Under the pieces are notes generated by a model. It saw nothing but the letters and a program-made list of their open reading frames with translations, was not told the DNA's origin and searched no databases. Below, in pieces: positions 7,943 to 19,340 of a stretch of DNA of 33,071 nt. How positions within the stretch are numbered: position 1 is the first letter of the stretch; every line of letters starts with the position of its first letter. The DNA is from a virus, in IMG/VR virus record IMGVR_UViG_3300039159_000237, positions 1 to 33,071 of that record; one strand, given 5' to 3'. The position numbers and the translations under genes were made by a program.

Positions 7943-8992
7943 ATGAATGTATTAACAAGGTATGGTGGAGTAACCTTATCTAGTCTAAGTGTGGGTAGTA
8001 GAGTAATAGCTGGAGATGATGTTAGACAACCTAATCTTAGTGGTGATGAGGCTCTTATTACTTCTATAGAAATAGGGGAAAAGGATCTATATAAAATTAC
8101 ACTTACTGATGGCACAGAACTCGAAAGGGGTTTAGATTCCTTATGGCAGGTTAAAGAAGAGAGCGCTTCTATCTGGTCTATAGTAGTTCTAGATGAGCTT
8201 CTAACCTGGTTTCCTAATAAGATAGATCCCTATTATTGTGCTTGTAGTTCTAATCCTTATATAAAAGCTAGGTATGAAATAAGACAGGTTCAATACTATA
8301 TACCTTTCTCTAACATACTTCTTGATTCTATTCCACCATATTGGATAGGTGTCTTTGCTACTAAGGGATGTTTGGAAGGGCCAGAGCCTTTCCTTTACTT
8401 AGATAGAGAAGAGGCCTCTAGGATAAGAGATCAAGGTTCATGGGACTTCATTCTTATGGAGCCTTATACAACTACTCCTGATAAATACTTCTTTAGAAGT
8501 TATACCTATATCAATGAAAGGAGTAAGTTATCTATTGAATTAGAAAACTTGGGCCTTCTCTTTAAGAGTAAGGAAGAAAGACTAATTCATAACTCTTACA
8601 TCTATAGTGATTTTAGAGATAGGGTTAATCTCATACAAGGGATTATGGATAGTGTAGGTTATATAGACCCTATTACTGGGATAAGTATTGCTCTCTTATC
8701 TAATCAAGGTATAGCTAAACAATTAGAGTTCATAGTTAGAACCTTAGGTGGCACTACTACGACTTATTATGATAGTAAGGTAAGAGAGTATTTAGTCAGT
8801 GTATATCTACCTAGGACTGAAACCCCTTTCTCTAGACCTAGCTTAGTTAATAGGTACACATACTTTGAACCTAAGTTAACCCCTATATATATTGAGAGTA
8901 TAGAAAGGCTGGATGAAAGGGGTCTTGTTACTAGTATTAATCTAGAGAATAATCAACCTTATATTACAGATGAATTCTTAGTTATTTATTAA
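7943..8992 (+). CDS. Free-standing, splicing-defective intein-like protein (Hint + LAGLIDADG)
   Basis: This 349-residue protein looks like a whole intein without exteins. Residues 1-70 resemble the Hint N-terminal half of phage inteins: VLTRYGGVTLSSLSVGSRVI, ALITSIEIGEKDLYKITLTD, then GLDSLWQV. It begins directly after where the catalytic Cys and the G-D/E-T segment should be, and the block B His (usually DHLW) is replaced by Ser. Residues 122-132 (PYWIGVFATKG) and 220-231 (LIQGIMDSVGYI) match the two LAGLIDADG helices. The first lacks its acidic residue; the second keeps Asp. The end, NNQPYITDEFLVIY, corresponds to the usual HLYLTDDFIVTHN, but the terminal His-Asn is gone. It has its own RBS (AAGGAG) and a stop just upstream in frame. 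It is predicted to be unable to splice; DNA cleavage is possible but uncertain. It sits next to phoH, which is uninterrupted. Confidence 0.75.
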   Translation: MNVLTRYGGVTLSSLSVGSRVIAGDDVRQPNLSGDEALITSIEIGEKDLYKITLTDGTELERGLDSLWQVKEESASIWSIVVLDELLTWFPNKIDPYYCACSSNPYIKARYEIRQVQYYIPFSNILLDSIPPYWIGVFATKGCLEGPEPFLYLDREEASRIRDQGSWDFILMEPYTTTPDKYFFRSYTYINERSKLSIELENLGLLFKSKEERLIHNSYIYSDFRDRVNLIQGIMDSVGYIDPITGISIALLSNQGIAKQLEFIVRTLGGTTTTYYDSKVREYLVSVYLPRTETPFSRPSLVNRYTYFEPKLTPIYIESIERLDERGLVTSINLENNQPYITDEFLVIY

Positions 8993-14072: not shown

Positions 14073-14678
14073 ATGCATAATGATGGAGAAGATGAAGATG
14101 GAGATGGAGAAGAACCTAAATTTAATGCTATGGAGGATGAAGAGATACTCATTTGTCCTAGCCCTTATGATACTAATTGTAGATGGCTGGATATTAAGTG
14201 TTCTTCCTGTAAGGTAATCAATAGGTCTAGCAAGGCATTACATTATAGTCCTCTTAGTAGGTTATTACCTAAACATCCTTTATTAATGGCAGAGGAGAAG
14301 GATAAGAAGGAAGCTAGGAAGTTATTAGCTAAGGAGAAGAAGAGTAGCTCTGCTTCTATTAAAGGAAGAACTAATAATAGACTGGGTAAGAAAGCTGAAA
14401 GAGTTGCTATGAAAGATATAGGTGCTAAGGCTACTATAGCTTCTGGCTCTGTATGTGGGGATGGTGATGCATATATAAGTGCTGGCGATCTTAAGTTACA
14501 GATAGAACATAAGCTTAGAATATCTAGTAAGGGTAGACTCGGCATTACTAAAGAGGAATGGGATAAAGGTAAAAGACAGGGTATAGACCTATTTGTTATA
14601 TCCTCTGAGGATCAAAGAATAGTAATAATGAGTGATGAATTATTTAAGACTTTAATGGAGATTATTAATAATGGCTAA
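14073..14678 (+). CDS. PD-(D/E)XK nuclease, Hjc-like, with N-terminal Cys4 motif
   Basis: This is a 201-residue protein when started at ATG 14073, which has TAAGGA six bases upstream; a GTG at 14049 would add eight residues. After an acidic N-terminus come four Cys (C-x7-C-x6-C-x2-C, residues 28-46), a possible zinc site. A Lys-rich linker follows. The nuclease core is NRLGKKAERVAMKDIGAKAT with Glu about 109, ASGS, then GDLKLQIEHK holding Asp 139, Glu 145 and Lys 147. This order (E, S, D, ExK) is that of archaeal Hjc-type Holliday junction resolvases and related phage nucleases. The last part (GIDLFVISSEDQRIVIMSDE) fits the closing strands. It overlaps recA by eight bases, so it probably acts in recombination. 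Junction specificity is inferred, not shown. Confidence 0.7.
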   Translation: MHNDGEDEDGDGEEPKFNAMEDEEILICPSPYDTNCRWLDIKCSSCKVINRSSKALHYSPLSRLLPKHPLLMAEEKDKKEARKLLAKEKKSSSASIKGRTNNRLGKKAERVAMKDIGAKATIASGSVCGDGDAYISAGDLKLQIEHKLRISSKGRLGITKEEWDKGKRQGIDLFVISSEDQRIVIMSDELFKTLMEIINNG

Positions 14679-16932
14679 GGCAACAACTAAGGAATCAACT
14701 AAGGCAACACCTAAGGAATCACCTATTGAGGATTTAGATAGTAAGCTAAAGGAATATGAGGCCTTAGATAAACAACTGGCAGCTATTGGGGGTTCTTATA
14801 AAGGGCTTACTGGTAAGAATAAGAAGATGACTAATACTCTTACCTTCATTTCTACTGGTTGTATCTCTATAGATAGGGCTATAAAAGGTTTAGTACCTGG
14901 TAGGATCTATGAGATATTTGGTAAGACTGGAGTATGTAAATCATCTGTTACTCTAGCTATGATGGCAGCTATGCAAAGGGCGGGCCATGTTTGTATGTGG
15001 ATAGATGTGGAGGCTTGCTTCACTGAAGAGTATGCCAGTATGTGTGGTGTAGATGTTGAGAAGCTTATCCTTATACGTCCTGATAATATGAATGAGGCAT
15101 TAGAGGCAATAAGGGTAGCCTCATCCTCTGGCTTAGTTAAGTTTATTGGATTAGACAGCGTAGCTGCAATGGTGCCTAAGGATGAGTTTGATAAGGATGT
15201 AGGTGGTGGAATGCTAGGCACTAGAGCTAGGTTACTATCAAGTGCCTTACCTCAAATAGTTAAACACTGCGGAGATACTGGTTGTATCCTTATGTGTATC
15301 AATCAAGTACGTGCTGCAAACCTTATGGGATATGGATGCTTCCATGAGGATACCTTAGTAACCTTTAGTGATGGTTCTTTAGTACCTATTAAGAAGGTAG
15401 TAGAAGATAAAATGGTAGGCCCAGTACTTAGCTATGATGATACCTCTGGTCAATTCATATCTAAGAAGATAACTAATTGGTTTAATAACGGTAAGTTAGA
15501 TTTATCTAATGAGACTTGGCATAACTTTATAACCTCCTCTGCTGGAGGTCGAGGTGGGCGTATGGGTTTCTCTTGTACTCCTAATCATGAAGTACTAACT
15601 TCTGAGGGCTATAAGAAAGCTCAAGAGTTAACAGTAGGTACCAAGCTTATTTCTTACTATGAGAGTAAGTGGTTAAATAACCCTGTTATTAGTGATATTA
15701 TTTATGGCTCATTATTGGGAGATGGAGGTTTAATACGTAGAGATACTTCTACAGCTGCCTTGGGGTTACAGAACAATAAACAGAAGGAATACTTAGATTG
15801 GAAGATGAATATCCTTTCTGGTTTAGATTGGAAACCTCGGGGTATTAGTTTTAATAGCTCTTTTTCTACTGAGTTATCTTTACTAAAAGATAAGTTCTAT
15901 AGGTGGCATGGAAAGAGAGAAAGAAGGATGATCCCAGATGATCTAATTCTTACTCCTTTAATGGCTGCTGTGTGGTATATGGATGATGGTTCTATCGACC
16001 TTAAGGATTATCATAAAAGGGGTAAAGTCTCTGCTTATAGATTAACTACTATTTATGATGAACAGTTAAGAGAAGCGCAGCTAAATAAGTATAAAGAGGT
16101 CTGGTCTTCTTTCTTAGGTGTAGCAGTAGATAAAGTAGATTCTAGAGGTAGTATTTACTTTGATACTCAAGCCTTTTCTATCTTATGTGAGAAGATACAT
16201 AAGTATGTTCCACCTTCTATGCAATATAAACTACTAGAGGAGTATAGAGGTAAGTATAAAGAAGTTGAGGTAGGTAATGTTAATTCTACAACTCATCCAT
16301 ATGAAGTAGAAATCTTATCAATAGATGTCTTATCTCCTAGGAAACTTAGGGTTAAGACTAAATATGATATAGAGGTAGAAGGAACTCATAACTATCTAGT
16401 GGGCGGAGGTAATAGAGGTGTAGTTGTACATAACTCTAAGTCAACCACAACAGGGGGTGCAGCACTTCCTTATTACTCTTCAGTTAGAATGGAGATGAAT
16501 AGAAGTGGCTATATTGAGGGTAAGGGTGATGAGAAAATAGGTATGGAAATTAAACTCCAAACTATTAAGAATAAGACCTATACTCCTTTTAAGACAGCTA
16601 CCCTTACTTTCATCTATCCTACTGAGGATGGTAAAGGAGGCTTAGACCTAATAGCAGATGTAGTAACTAATGCTGTTGAGTTAGGTGTTATTGTTAAGGC
16701 AGGTTCTTGGATGAGATATGGTGAGAGTATATCTATTCAGGGTGAACCTAAGTTTAAGACTCTATTAGAAAGTGATCCAGTATTACTATCTGAGATTAGA
16801 GAGAAGACAATGGAACTTATTAATAATAGTAATAATAATAGTAATAATAATAATAATAGTGAGAGTGATATAGATGATGGAACAGGAAGTGAAGACTCCT
16901 CAAGTGAAAAAGAGGGCCAGGAAGAGCCCTAA
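14671..16932 (+). CDS. recA: RecA-family recombinase precursor containing an intein
   Basis: This 753-residue precursor would give a 387-residue RecA after loss of the 366-residue intein. RecA pairs homologous DNA strands using ATP. The N-extein shows STGCISIDRAIKGLVPGRIY, the P-loop GKTGVCKS (84-91), IDVEACF, the Walker B-like FIGLDSVAAMVP (159-168), GTRARLLSSALPQI and CINQVRAANLMGYG, which leads into loop L2. After the intein, STTTGGAALPYYSSVRMEM completes L2, followed by the closing RecA core. The second Gly of the usual GxxxxGK is Cys here (C89). T4 UvsX also departs from Gly at this place, so activity is not excluded. The N-terminus (1-45) is Lys/Glu-rich. The C-terminus is a poly-Asn tract followed by an acidic tail, as RecA often has. 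The end overlaps the next gene by 59 bases. Confidence 0.92.
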   Translation: MAKATTKESTKATPKESPIEDLDSKLKEYEALDKQLAAIGGSYKGLTGKNKKMTNTLTFISTGCISIDRAIKGLVPGRIYEIFGKTGVCKSSVTLAMMAAMQRAGHVCMWIDVEACFTEEYASMCGVDVEKLILIRPDNMNEALEAIRVASSSGLVKFIGLDSVAAMVPKDEFDKDVGGGMLGTRARLLSSALPQIVKHCGDTGCILMCINQVRAANLMGYGCFHEDTLVTFSDGSLVPIKKVVEDKMVGPVLSYDDTSGQFISKKITNWFNNGKLDLSNETWHNFITSSAGGRGGRMGFSCTPNHEVLTSEGYKKAQELTVGTKLISYYESKWLNNPVISDIIYGSLLGDGGLIRRDTSTAALGLQNNKQKEYLDWKMNILSGLDWKPRGISFNSSFSTELSLLKDKFYRWHGKRERRMIPDDLILTPLMAAVWYMDDGSIDLKDYHKRGKVSAYRLTTIYDEQLREAQLNKYKEVWSSFLGVAVDKVDSRGSIYFDTQAFSILCEKIHKYVPPSMQYKLLEEYRGKYKEVEVGNVNSTTHPYEVEILSIDVLSPRKLRVKTKYDIEVEGTHNYLVGGGNRGVVVHNSKSTTTGGAALPYYSSVRMEMNRSGYIEGKGDEKIGMEIKLQTIKNKTYTPFKTATLTFIYPTEDGKGGLDLIADVVTNAVELGVIVKAGSWMRYGESISIQGEPKFKTLLESDPVLLSEIREKTMELINNSNNNSNNNNNSESDIDDGTGSEDSSSEKEGQEEP
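15337..16434 (+). other. Intein in RecA with LAGLIDADG homing endonuclease
   Basis: This encodes residues 223-588 of the precursor. It begins at Cys (CFHEDTLVTFSDGSLVPIKK, block A) after ...ANLMGYG. Block B is seen as FSCTPNHEVLTSEGYKKAQ, with the TPNH signature. The endonuclease helices are DIIYGSLLGDGGL (about residue 345) and PLMAAVWYMDDGSID (about 428), both with the acidic residue kept. The end is GTHNYLVGGGNRGVVVHN followed by Ser as the +1 residue. All splicing residues are present (Cys1, TxxH, C-terminal His-Asn, +1 Ser), so it should be splicing-competent, and the endonuclease also looks intact. It sits in the DNA-binding L2 loop, a classic conserved site for inteins. Confidence 0.93.
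16820..16860 (+). repeat. AAT/AGT trinucleotide repeat encoding poly-Asn
   Basis: An in-frame run of AAT with interspersed AGT codons encodes an Asn/Ser tract near the RecA C-terminus, between the folded core and the acidic tail. It is prone to slippage in whole codons, so linker length may vary between relatives. Confidence 0.85.
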
Positions 16933-17317
16933 TATTAATAATAGTAAGTTTGCTAATCTTAGCATTAGCGATCTTATAGCTAGGTCTAGTGAGCTTATTG
17001 CAGAGCTAGAAGATATTAAGTTGGAGTTAGGTAAAGCAGTAGAAGCCTTTAAAGAGATTGGTATTACTGTGGGTGGAGGTGGTGGAGGAACTCTGAATCA
17101 AGCTGTTCCTACTAATCCTTATTACTCTGGAAGTCTTAATCCATCTATAGAGCCAACTCAATTAGCCTTACCTGAAGGGTCTCCTAAGGACTTAGGTAAT
17201 AATATGGAATATTCCTTTAAGGTAATGGCTCCTGAGGATTCTGTAGAGGATATTAAAGGGGTAATAGCAGAACAAGTTAAAGCTTTAGAGAGCATTACTA
17301 ATACAATTAAAGTATAG
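16874..17317 (+). CDS. Hypothetical protein with basic N-terminus and coiled coil
   Basis: This 147-residue protein begins inside the 3' end of recA in another frame (59-base overlap). The N-terminus is basic (VKKRARKSPNINN). A coiled-coil helix follows (SISDLIARSSELIAELEDIK, LELGKAVEAFKEI), then a Gly-rich linker (VGGGGGGTL), a Pro/Ser-rich low-complexity part, and a short C-terminal helix (IKGVIAEQVKALESITNTI). The GAGAGTGAT before the start is a weak RBS, and no better start exists. It may be an accessory protein co-made with RecA; no family is recognised. It is the last phage gene before the IsrB element. Confidence 0.65.
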   Translation: MMEQEVKTPQVKKRARKSPNINNSKFANLSISDLIARSSELIAELEDIKLELGKAVEAFKEIGITVGGGGGGTLNQAVPTNPYYSGSLNPSIEPTQLALPEGSPKDLGNNMEYSFKVMAPEDSVEDIKGVIAEQVKALESITNTIKV

Positions 17318-17341
17318 AATTAAAAGGTTCATATAAATACT

Positions 17342-17565
17342 ATCCCTCGTCACTAACTCCGGGCTGAAGCCACGGAGCTTGTCTGAACCAATTCAGACAA
17401 CTTAAGTAGCGACTAGCCCATTGAGTCACCAGATGTTACAGATTTCCGAATACTTCTCTAGTTCGGATTGACTCTAAGCCTGATTGGTTCGGGCGTTGCA
17501 TTATGGCAAGACATATTTCTGGTGATGGGCGAAGAGACTTAAACAAGTAATTGGGTTATACCAAA
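17342..17565 (+). ncRNA. Candidate omega-RNA (HEARO-like) guiding IsrB
   Basis: This 224-base non-coding stretch directly before isrB has a strong nested fold. CTCCG/CGGAG (17357-17361/17373-17377) encloses GGC-TGAA-GCC. TTGTCTGAA pairs with TTCAGACAA (17379-17387/17392-17400) around CCAA. TCCGAA pairs with TTCGGA (17445-17450/17462-17467). The long-range helix TCACCAGA/TCTGGTGA (17426-17433/17518-17525) is continued by GCCCA/TGGGC (17416-17420/17526-17530). A multi-helix RNA with a long-range closing stem just upstream of the ORF is the known architecture of omega-RNAs of IscB/IsrB. The guide would be the bases just 5' of the scaffold, that is, flanking phage DNA. The exact ends are uncertain. 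Confidence 0.75.
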
Positions 17566-18660
17566 ATGCGAATTCCAGTTGTCGATCAAGGTCATGAGCC
17601 ACTCATGCCTACCACCCCTGCACGAGCGAGGAAATGGCTTGCCTCTGGTAAAGCCATCAAGCGCTGGTCTGATTGTGGTCAGTTCTATGTGCAACTCACC
17701 GTAGAACCATCCGGCTATGCCACCCAATCTATTGTTGTCGGGATTGACCCCGGCAAGAAGTATTCAGGGATTGGCGTTCAATCAACGCGCTTCACGCTGT
17801 ACACCGCTCATCTAATTCTGCCGTTCCAAACGGTTAGAGACAGGATGGACTCACGCCGCTTGATGCGACGGGCACGTAGAGGGCGCAGAATCAACCGTAA
17901 GGTGAAGTTCAATCAACGCGCCCATCGTCAGAAACGATTCTCGAATCGACGGCAAAGTAAGCTTGCTCCTTCAATTAGAGCTAATCGTCAGCTTGAACTC
18001 AGAATTGTGTCTGAACTCTGTCAGATTTACCCAGTCAAAGCTATTCGATATGAATATGTTCGAGCTGATGTAGATCTCACCAGTGGGCGTAAGAAGGCTC
18101 GTTCAGGTAAAGGGTTTAGTGCTGTGATGGTGGGTCAGAAATGGATGCTGGAGCAGTTGAAACAATTTGCTCCTGTCAGCACTATTGAGGGCTATCAAAC
18201 TGCCTCAACTCGCAAGTATCTAGGGCTGAGCAAGGACAAAGTAAATAAGTCGAAGGCTGAGTTCAACACTCATGCTGTCGATGGAGTGGCAATAGCTGCT
18301 TCCTACTTTGTTAGATATCAACAGTATCACAGGGTTGGTGAAGATGGTGGTGATTGGGTAGGTAATGTTTTCATCACGCCTGCACCATTCCTTGTCATTT
18401 GTCGTCCACCTTACAGTCGTCGCCAGCTTCACTTAATGGTTCCTGCCATTGGTGGAGTAAGGCGTAAATATGGTGGGTCTACGACTCGCCACGGGGTTCG
18501 TAAGGGTGACTTAGTTAATTCCCCCAAAGGGATTGGCTATGTTTCTGGCGACACCAAAACACAGATATCTGTTAGCAATGCCAACTGGAAACGGTTGGGG
18601 CGGATATCGGCTAAAAAGGTGCAATTAATCCGTAGGTCAAACGGCTTGATTGTAGCTTGA
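17566..18660 (+). CDS. isrB: IsrB: RNA-guided RuvC nickase (IscB relative without HNH)
   Basis: This is a 364-residue protein. The ATG at 17566 is preferred over TTG 17551, because IscB/IsrB proteins begin a few residues before the PLMP motif. The PLMP domain is VVDQGHEPLMPTTPARARKW. RuvC-I is VVGIDPGKKYSG (Asp 61). An Arg-rich bridge helix follows (RRLMRRARRGRRINRK). RuvC-II is IRYEYV (Glu 163). RuvC-III is NTHAVDGVAIAA (His 236, Asp 239). Only about 70 residues separate RuvC-II and -III, containing VGQKWMLEQL, with no HNH motif; this and the length identify IsrB rather than IscB. The C-terminus (KYGGSTTRHGVRKGDLV, GRISAKKVQLIRRSNGL) matches the target-adjacent-motif interaction region. IsrB proteins nick DNA guided by omega-RNA. 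All RuvC residues are kept, so it is probably active. Confidence 0.9.
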   Translation: MRIPVVDQGHEPLMPTTPARARKWLASGKAIKRWSDCGQFYVQLTVEPSGYATQSIVVGIDPGKKYSGIGVQSTRFTLYTAHLILPFQTVRDRMDSRRLMRRARRGRRINRKVKFNQRAHRQKRFSNRRQSKLAPSIRANRQLELRIVSELCQIYPVKAIRYEYVRADVDLTSGRKKARSGKGFSAVMVGQKWMLEQLKQFAPVSTIEGYQTASTRKYLGLSKDKVNKSKAEFNTHAVDGVAIAASYFVRYQQYHRVGEDGGDWVGNVFITPAPFLVICRPPYSRRQLHLMVPAIGGVRRKYGGSTTRHGVRKGDLVNSPKGIGYVSGDTKTQISVSNANWKRLGRISAKKVQLIRRSNGLIVA

Positions 18661-18675
18661 TAGCTTGAAGTAAAG

Positions 18676-18701
18676 CCGTCCTCCGCTTTGCTAAAAGACG
18701 G
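18676..18701 (+). other. Right-end hairpin of the IsrB element
   Basis: CCGTC (18676-18680) pairs with GACGG (18697-18701) around CTCCGCTTTGCTAAAA, followed by GGGTTTCCACC. Subterminal hairpins of this type mark the right end of IS200/IS605-family elements, where they are recognised by TnpA. It lies 16 bases after the isrB stop. Confidence 0.65.
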
Positions 18702-18735
18702 GGTTTCCACCTACATTTTTGATGAGGGTTTAATT

Positions 18736-19290
18736 ATGTCTACTACTATTATTGATCCTGTTGATTATGGTTTAGTTTGTATTGGTATAGACCCTGGTAA
18801 GAAGGGCGGCTTATCTTTAGTATCATCTCTTATAGGAGTAATAGATAGTATAGAAATGCCTATACTAAAAGGGGAATTAGATCTCTCTTATATCACCTGT
18901 CTATTAATTAAATGGATAGATAAATATGGGGTGTCCTTTATAGTTACAGAAGCCCAACAAGCTATGGGAGGACAAGGAGTTACTTCTACCTTCACTACTG
19001 GGTATAACTATGGACTCTTATTAGGAGTAGCTAGTACTATTGGAACTCCAATCATTAAGGTAAGACCTAAAGAATGGCAAGCCATTATTAAGGATGACCT
19101 AGTAATAATGCAAGAGTTGATAGACCATACAATGAAGATGACTAAAAAGAAAAGTCTTAGTGCCTGTAATAACTTATATCCTCTTATTCCCTTAGTAACT
19201 GCTAGAGGTAGATGGATGGATGGTATATCAGACTCTATTCTTATAGCCACTTATGGGTGTTTAAAAATCAAAGTAATCAAAGTAATATAA
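18736..19290 (+). CDS. RuvC-like Holliday junction resolvase
   Basis: This 184-residue protein has a RuvC/RNase H-like fold. Motifs are CIGIDPGKKGGLSLV (Asp 19), IVTEAQQAMGGQGVTSTFTT (Glu 72) with YNYGLLLGV, a conserved VRPKEWQ, and WMDGISDSILIATYG (Asp 162, Asp 166). This is the phage form of RuvC, where the GQG..S....G.N.G segment after motif II is typical. It should cut recombination or replication junctions as a dimer. The ATG at 18736 follows GAGGG and is chosen over an ATG at 18688, because the extra 16 residues would come from the IsrB element's right end. The final residues KIKVIKVI are encoded by a 9-base tandem repeat that runs on past the stop. Confidence 0.85.
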   Translation: MSTTIIDPVDYGLVCIGIDPGKKGGLSLVSSLIGVIDSIEMPILKGELDLSYITCLLIKWIDKYGVSFIVTEAQQAMGGQGVTSTFTTGYNYGLLLGVASTIGTPIIKVRPKEWQAIIKDDLVIMQELIDHTMKMTKKKSLSACNNLYPLIPLVTARGRWMDGISDSILIATYGCLKIKVIKVI

Positions 19291-19340
19291 GTAATATAAG
19301 TAATATAAGTAATATAAGTAATATAAGTAATCAAAGTAAT
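19267..19340 (+). repeat. 9-base tandem repeat spanning the end of the ruvC-like gene
   Basis: About eight units of AAGTAATAT or AAGTAATCA run from inside the ruvC-like gene into the intergenic region. Units with TCA encode K-V-I, while the TATA variant creates the TAA stop. The number and type of units therefore set the protein's C-terminal length. Followed by two GGGTATATA copies. Confidence 0.85.

What the first reader, a model, noticed from the sequence alone, without database searches (positions are those of the whole stretch)
17342..18710. IsrB/omega-RNA element inserted in a phage recombination operon
The insert carries an IsrB nickase (PLMP domain, complete RuvC triad, no HNH), an upstream structured RNA and an IS605-type right-end hairpin, with foreign base and codon use. 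It lies between recA-linked genes and a ruvC-like gene in a large phage. RNA-guided nickases of this group are known mainly from bacterial chromosomes. In a phage it could promote its own spread by nicking sister genomes, or could be used against competing phages.
Basis: partly seen in the sequence, partly recalled or inferred. Interest (0 to 1): 0.85.

Follow-up and report, generated by a model that had tools for sequence, protein, structure and literature searches.

The report
Host-derived RNA-guided nickase element in cyanophage
A virus of cyanobacteria carries a complete mobile element from its host that encodes an RNA-guided DNA-nicking enzyme (IsrB) and its guide RNA, in a position from which it should nick virus copies lacking it; such elements are already known in cyanobacteria and a few of their viruses.

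Summary
At 17349-18721 lies an intact HEARO/IsrB element: a conserved ωRNA (all 53 consensus pairs kept), a 364-aa IsrB with PLMP domain, RuvC residues and no HNH, and a right-end hairpin, inserted directly 5' of ATGA in a 45-bp gap between recA/orf147 and a RuvC resolvase gene. Base and codon use are foreign. Nearest relatives are cyanobacterial chromosomal copies (82%). Phage copies, including Ma-LMM01's, fall in several host clades, which suggests repeated host-to-phage entry. The window's own empty site was not found, but two LMM01-group sites are filled in some phages and precisely empty in others, each time at ATGA. So this is a new member of a known kind; one paper even reports a host IsrB element jumping into phage Mic1. 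Best mechanism: the guide copies the left flank and the TAM is ATGA, so IsrB nicks element-free sister genomes and favours its own retention or spread. The geometry is shown; the activity is inferred. Unexpected by-product: in LMM01-group phages the ωRNA is preceded by CRISPR-like arrays of up to 11 ωRNA 5' ends; one array guide equals Microcystis ndhH directly before ATGA. That may be a guide array or a fossil of past insertions.

The parts
17329..17348 (+). predicted guide (last 20 nt of the left flank, TCATATAAATACTATCCCTC), transcribed 5' of the omegaRNA scaffold
   Evidence: position by analogy with DtIsrB (20-nt guide directly 5' of the scaffold, PMC9581776); sequence; not tested
17349..17565 (+). 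omegaRNA (HEARO) scaffold and left end
   Evidence: RF02033 hit; consensus with 53 pairs, all kept here; fold z -4.1; alignment A3
17566..18660 (+). IsrB, 364 aa: PLMP domain, split RuvC, bridge helix, TAM-interacting domain, no HNH
   Evidence: dN 0.14 against dS about 2 versus the nearest chromosomal copy
18661..18721 (+). right end with hairpin CCGTC..GACGG, ending TTTTTG
   Evidence: comparison with chromosomal and phage copies; single-sequence fold weak
18722..18725 (+). ATGA directly after the right end: target-adjacent motif of the empty site
   Evidence: ATGA borders the right end in nearly all close copies and at both empty sites of sister phages; NTGA TAM known for DtIsrB (PMC9581776)
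14671..16932 (+). flank: recA interrupted by a LAGLIDADG intein
   Evidence: Pfam RecA 5e-50, LAGLIDADG_2 4.7e-12, intein splicing
16874..17317 (+). flank: orf147, no known relatives
   Evidence: no match in phages, viral contigs or PHROGs
18736..19290 (+). flank: RuvC-type Holliday junction resolvase gene, left intact
   Evidence: phrog_1770 2.7e-19; about 30% identical to LMM01 gp126

Best explanation
It is a complete, recently acquired HEARO/IsrB mobile element from a cyanobacterial chromosome, inserted without visible loss directly before an ATGA in the gap upstream of a phage ruvC gene. It carries no transposase, so it must have moved with a TnpA supplied in trans (inferred). Transcription through the left flank gives an omegaRNA whose guide is that flank (TCATATAAATACTATCCCTC). 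IsrB with this RNA should bind and nick only the element-free allele, where the guide match is followed by the TAM ATGA. In the filled allele the match is followed by GTCA, which is no NTG TAM, so the carrier is spared. In a cell with many replicating phage genomes, a nick in the empty allele becomes a break at the next fork and is repaired by the phage's own recombination (RecA, RuvC, PD-(D/E)XK nuclease) from an element-bearing copy: retention after excision, and drive through co-infecting phages. Shown: anatomy, foreign origin, intact protein and RNA, insertion rule at ATGA, self-protecting geometry, filled/empty polymorphism in related phages. Inferred: activity, the mobilising transposase, and the drive.
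For: Protein, fold and catalytic residues. RNA. Foreign GC and codons. Nearest relatives are cyanobacterial chromosomal copies (82% Hydrococcus). In the tree the window lies in a 21-row set (100/99) of 18 chromosomal and 3 phage copies, and starred branches force at least 5 label changes among phage copies. Ends and ATGA. Filled and precisely empty versions of two LMM01-group sites, both at ATGA. RuvC homologues of LMM01, MaMV-DL01 and other relatives have other genes, not this element, upstream. Observed jump of host IsrB (with 207 bp upstream and 59 bp downstream) into Mic1 at ATGA: PMC11237433. IsrB nicks the non-target strand at NTGA: PMC9581776. TnpB of IS200/605 acts as a gene drive in plasmids: PMC11870625.
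Against: No close relative of this phage with the empty site was found. IsrB nicks one strand only, so it may drive less well than TnpB. No TnpA gene was recognised in the parts of the 33-kb contig examined. No expression data. The Mic1 insertion was associated with a loss of phage fitness, so such insertions can be passive and harmful.
Confidence: 0.68

Rival explanations
1. Passive passenger: the element landed in the phage by chance through host TnpA during infection, does nothing for itself or the phage, and will be lost.
For: Foreign codon use says recent arrival. In LMM01-group phages the sites are polymorphic and one copy is a remnant holding an HNH gene. The Mic1 insertion came with a burst size of about 2 instead of about 450 (PMC11237433).
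Against: Protein and RNA are fully intact, and phage copies persist in several groups with clade structure.
Confidence: 0.27
2. Domesticated phage gene: IsrB and its RNA serve the phage against rival phages or the host.
For: In LMM01-group phages the omegaRNA is preceded by arrays of extra 5' ends, and one guide equals host ndhH directly before ATGA.
Against: The window copy has a single left end whose guide is its own flank, keeps both mobile ends and has host-like codons. No match of its guide to other DNA was found beyond chance in the loci held.
Confidence: 0.05

Closest known systems
IsrB of Desulfovirgula thermocuniculi (DtIsrB, PDB 8dmb)
   Same: full-length match, same domains, omegaRNA directly upstream, no HNH, NTGA-type TAM
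   Different: the window has Arg346 where DtIsrB has the TAM-reading Gln326; the Q326R mutant of DtIsrB also accepted NTGG (PMC9581776), so a relaxed NTGR TAM is predicted; omegaRNA about 217 nt plus guide instead of 284
IsrB/HEARO elements on cyanobacterial chromosomes (L012-L028)
   Same: about 74-82% protein identity, same RNA fold, same ends, same ATGA
   Different: this copy is in a phage
IsrB (RRXRR protein) of Microcystis phages Ma-LMM01, MaMV-DC, CH01, CH02, DH01
   Same: 65-66% identity, same layout, same insertion rule, related phage group
   Different: another insertion site, another host clade, and (shown for LMM01) extra left-end copies upstream, which the window lacks
Host orf2067 inserted in Mic1 gp49 (PMC11237433)
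   Same: host IsrB element moved into a cyanophage at ATGA
   Different: there it broke a tnpB gene and was associated with reduced infectivity; here it sits between genes
TnpB as gene drive of IS200/605 in plasmids (PMC11870625)
   Same: guide copied from the insertion site, attack on element-free copies
   Different: TnpB cuts both strands; IsrB nicks one

Membership tests
IsrB | N-terminal PLMP domain | tested here: met
   PLMPT motif at residues 12-16; RRXRR profile from residue 3; alignment to DtIsrB from residue 2
IsrB | complete RuvC I-III residues | tested here: met
   D61, E163, H236, D239 invariant in 32 sequences
IsrB | no HNH domain | tested here: met
   full-length alignment to DtIsrB; model shows only a low-confidence linker (about 169-183) between RuvC-II and RuvC-III; closer to 8dmb than to any IscB
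IsrB | omegaRNA (HEARO) upstream | tested here: met
   score below Rfam's gathering value but like that of chromosomal relatives
IsrB | NTGA-type TAM beside the insertion | tested here: met
   ATGA at 18722-18725; ATGA at most copies and at sister-phage empty sites
IsrB | RNA-guided nicking of the non-target strand | not testable with these tools
   needs biochemistry
IS200/IS605-type element | Y1 transposase TnpA in the element | tested here: not met
   IsrB is the only recognisable gene between 17349 and 18721; many IscB/IsrB elements lack tnpA, so it can only be a non-autonomous relative
IS200/IS605-type element | precise insertion at a fixed tetranucleotide without target duplication | tested here: inconclusive
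   met at two LMM01-group sites, with small flank differences in some phages; no empty version of the window's own site was found

The most novel reading that the evidence does not exclude
In cyanophages the IsrB element can become a multi-guide system. In LMM01-group phages the intact omegaRNA is preceded by tandem copies of its own 5' strand and hairpin, separated by short variable spacers, as in a CRISPR array. One guide is identical over about 30 nt to Microcystis ndhH directly before ATGA. A second recurring guide matches, with one mismatch in 19, the start of a small ORF about 1.1 kb away, again before ATGA. The arrays would let one scaffold use several guides, including host-directed ones: an independent route from omegaRNA to a CRISPR-like array. 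The window's element, with one guide, would be the simple starting state.
Probability: 0.15. Interest if true: 0.9.

Novelty: new member of a known kind. Interest (0 to 1): 0.47.

Why it matters
The copy shows a complete RNA-guided nickase element that came from host chromosomes into a phage and sits where its guide spares the carrier and marks element-free genomes. Phages replicate to many copies and recombine, so they are a good place to test whether a nickase (not a double-strand cutter) can drive its own inheritance. The related Microcystis phages add a testable lead on how single ωRNA guides may multiply into arrays, a step proposed for the origin of CRISPR.

Tried and rejected
Empty site of the window itself: joined flanks gave no match in viral contigs; RuvC, orf147 and PD-(D/E)XK proteins found no close relatives, only distant ones through an alignment; the genome search draws no relatives for a virus record. 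HNH/IscB: rejected. Degenerate ωRNA because of the sub-threshold Rfam score: rejected. Defence use in the window: no support. Array guides other than ndhH and the small-ORF start: CACACCTATYGTCGGTAATG and TTATAGAGGCAAGGCTAG not found before NTG(A) in 12 Microcystis genomes; the scaffold-proximal guide CCCTATATCTGGAGT found only at the level of the reversed control; one L101 spacer matches a host stretch but not in the TAM register.

Full report
WHAT IS THERE. The window is a 33-kb virus record. The element spans 17349-18721. Its ORF, ATG 17566 to stop 18660, is an IsrB: RRXRR profile, full-length match to DtIsrB 8dmb at 9e-44, predicted fold closest to 8dmb, catalytic D61, E163, H236 and D239 invariant among 32 homologues, no HNH. 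Upstream lies a HEARO RNA. Its Rfam score of 37.4 is below the gathering score, but so are those of the chromosomal relatives that matched (38-69). In a 20-sequence alignment 38 of 53 pairs show compensatory change and the window breaks none. The protein evolves under purifying selection (dN about 0.14, dS about 2 against the nearest copy; mostly history on chromosomes).

ENDS AND TARGET. Alignment with copies from phages and chromosomes puts the left end at GTCACTAAC (17349) and the right end at TTTTTG (18721), directly before ATGA. In 46 of 70 copies the first ATGA after the right end opens a reading frame of at least 50 codons, against 23% for ATGA in the flanks, so copies tend to sit just before start codons. 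In the window ATGA lies 14 bp before the ruvC start and overlaps its likely ribosome site (GAGGG). The joined flanks give the modelled empty site ...AATACTATCCCTC-ATGAGGG....

FOREIGN ORIGIN. GC is 47.8% against 37.3 +/- 2.4%. IsrB uses mainly CGN arginine codons, whereas in every other gene tabulated AGR outnumbers CGN. The nearest relatives are cyanobacterial chromosomal copies, up to 82%. In an 88-row tree the window lies in a supported set of 18 chromosomal and 3 phage copies; the LMM01 copy lies with Microcystis chromosomes; starred branches force at least five label changes. This suggests several independent entries into phages, though the direction of each is not proven.

THE PHAGE. RuvC, PD-(D/E)XK, p84, p235 and the giant minus-strand gene are syntenic with LMM01-group phages at about 25-40% identity; Microcoleus phage My-WqHQDG keeps the PD-(D/E)XK gene and relatives of the others nearby, some reversed. 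None of the RuvC homologues in the annotated relatives has an IsrB upstream, but the upstream genes differ, so this is not a true empty site.

EMPTY SITES IN RELATED PHAGES. Before gp170, LMM01 is filled while four IMG/VR contigs read straight from the gp172 stop into ATGAATACTAAG or ATGAATATTAAG (L117, L120, L121, L123). Before gp173 the reverse holds: LMM01, MaMV-DL01, L122 and L123 are empty (...CAGACTTAAGT-ATGACAGC; the bases just before ATGA vary) while L117 and L119-L121 end in ...TTTTTCA-ATGACAGC. L100 keeps the left flank exactly (CAGACTTAAGT-GTCACTAAC); others lost AGT. In MaMV-DL01 a gene for an HTH/HNH_3 protein lies between left-end and right-end remnants at the gp170 site.

MECHANISM. 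From the published biochemistry (PMC9581776), the guide is the 20 nt before the scaffold and the TAM follows the target. In the filled allele the guide match is followed by GTCA, in the empty allele by ATGA. IsrB should therefore nick only element-free genomes. Fork collapse and recombinational repair then copy the element. Each step after binding is inference; TnpB provides the precedent in plasmids (PMC11870625). In the alignment to 8dmb the residue matching Gln326 is Arg346 in the window, where at least 90% of relatives have Gln; the residue match rests on my own numbering of the 8dmb chain. The DtIsrB Q326R mutant tolerated NTGG, so the window's TAM may be relaxed.

WHAT IS KNOWN. Phage IsrB is not new: it is annotated as RRXRR in LMM01, is in PHROGs, and a host copy was seen entering Mic1 at ATGA (PMC11237433). 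The window is a new, divergent, probably independent case.

THE BY-PRODUCT. In LMM01-group phages the intact ωRNA is preceded by extra copies of its first 11-35 nt with variable spacers: 11 left ends in L096, 10 in L100, 8 in L102, 6 in L101, 5 in L098 and 4 in LMM01 itself, counting the functional one. Only 3 chromosomal loci show even one extra copy. The unit search required the first 11 bases, so the conservation of that part cannot be used as evidence. One guide, CCCTTTTTCTACATTTTCCGGGAACGGGAG, equals Microcystis ndhH (PF00346, 7.9e-104) followed by ATGA; a match at this place was found in all 12 Microcystis genomes searched. A second, GGCGACAGGAGCAAAATCT, has a one-mismatch site before ATGA in 3 of 12 genomes, none in the reversed control, about 1.1 kb from the ndhH site; part of it overlaps the left-end hairpin, so it is weaker. 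The scaffold-proximal guide is shared by LMM01 and several site-B phages, so the array seems to travel with the element. Two readings remain: a working multi-guide array, or flanks of former insertions kept when the element moved with an upstream false end (the ndhH flank CACAAACTCCC resembles the left end CACTAACCCC). I favour the second.

Noticed in passing
L096:3359-3790, L100:3439-3779, L102:3441-3779, L101:3553-3779, L098:3612-3780, L006:7677-7781 (Ma-LMM01): CRISPR-like arrays of 4-11 copies of the omegaRNA 5' end (GTCACTAACCC..) with variable, partly shared spacers upstream of IsrB in Microcystis phages; nearly absent from chromosomal copies.
   Followed up: partly
L096:3514-3553; L124:1501-1521: One array guide is identical over about 30 nt to Microcystis ndhH and is followed there by ATGA; match found in all 12 Microcystis genomes searched.
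   Followed up: partly
L006:7677-7714; L176, L204-L206: A second recurring array guide (GGCGACAGGAGCAAAATCT) has a one-mismatch host site before ATGA, at the start codon of a 59-codon ORF about 1.1 kb from the ndhH site, in 3 of 12 genomes.
   Followed up: partly
L008:3348-4176 and 1024-1243 (MaMV-DL01): At the LMM01 IsrB site an HTH/HNH_3 gene sits between left-end and right-end remnants; a second IsrB remnant lies about 2 kb upstream.
   Followed up: partly
L007:2501-2799 (phage Mic1): ORF-less HEARO element (omegaRNA plus right end only), directly before the ATGA start of Mic1_19: a MITE-like form; the preceding gene starts after a similar right end.
   Followed up: no
70 copies in L006, L012-L101 and window: The ATGA after the right end opens an ORF of 50 or more codons in 46 of 70 copies against 23% background: elements sit just before start codons.
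   Followed up: partly
window 14671-16932: recA carries an in-frame LAGLIDADG intein.
   Followed up: no
window 17344-17348 joined to 18722-18728: The modelled empty site contains a perfect 12-bp palindrome CCCTCATGAGGG split by the element.
   Followed up: no
window 19275-19335: Short tandem repeat (AATATAAGT) directly after the ruvC gene.
   Followed up: no
window 7943-8992: ORF of 349 aa before phoH whose ends look intein-like (Hint) by eye; no Pfam match at E 0.01.
   Followed up: no
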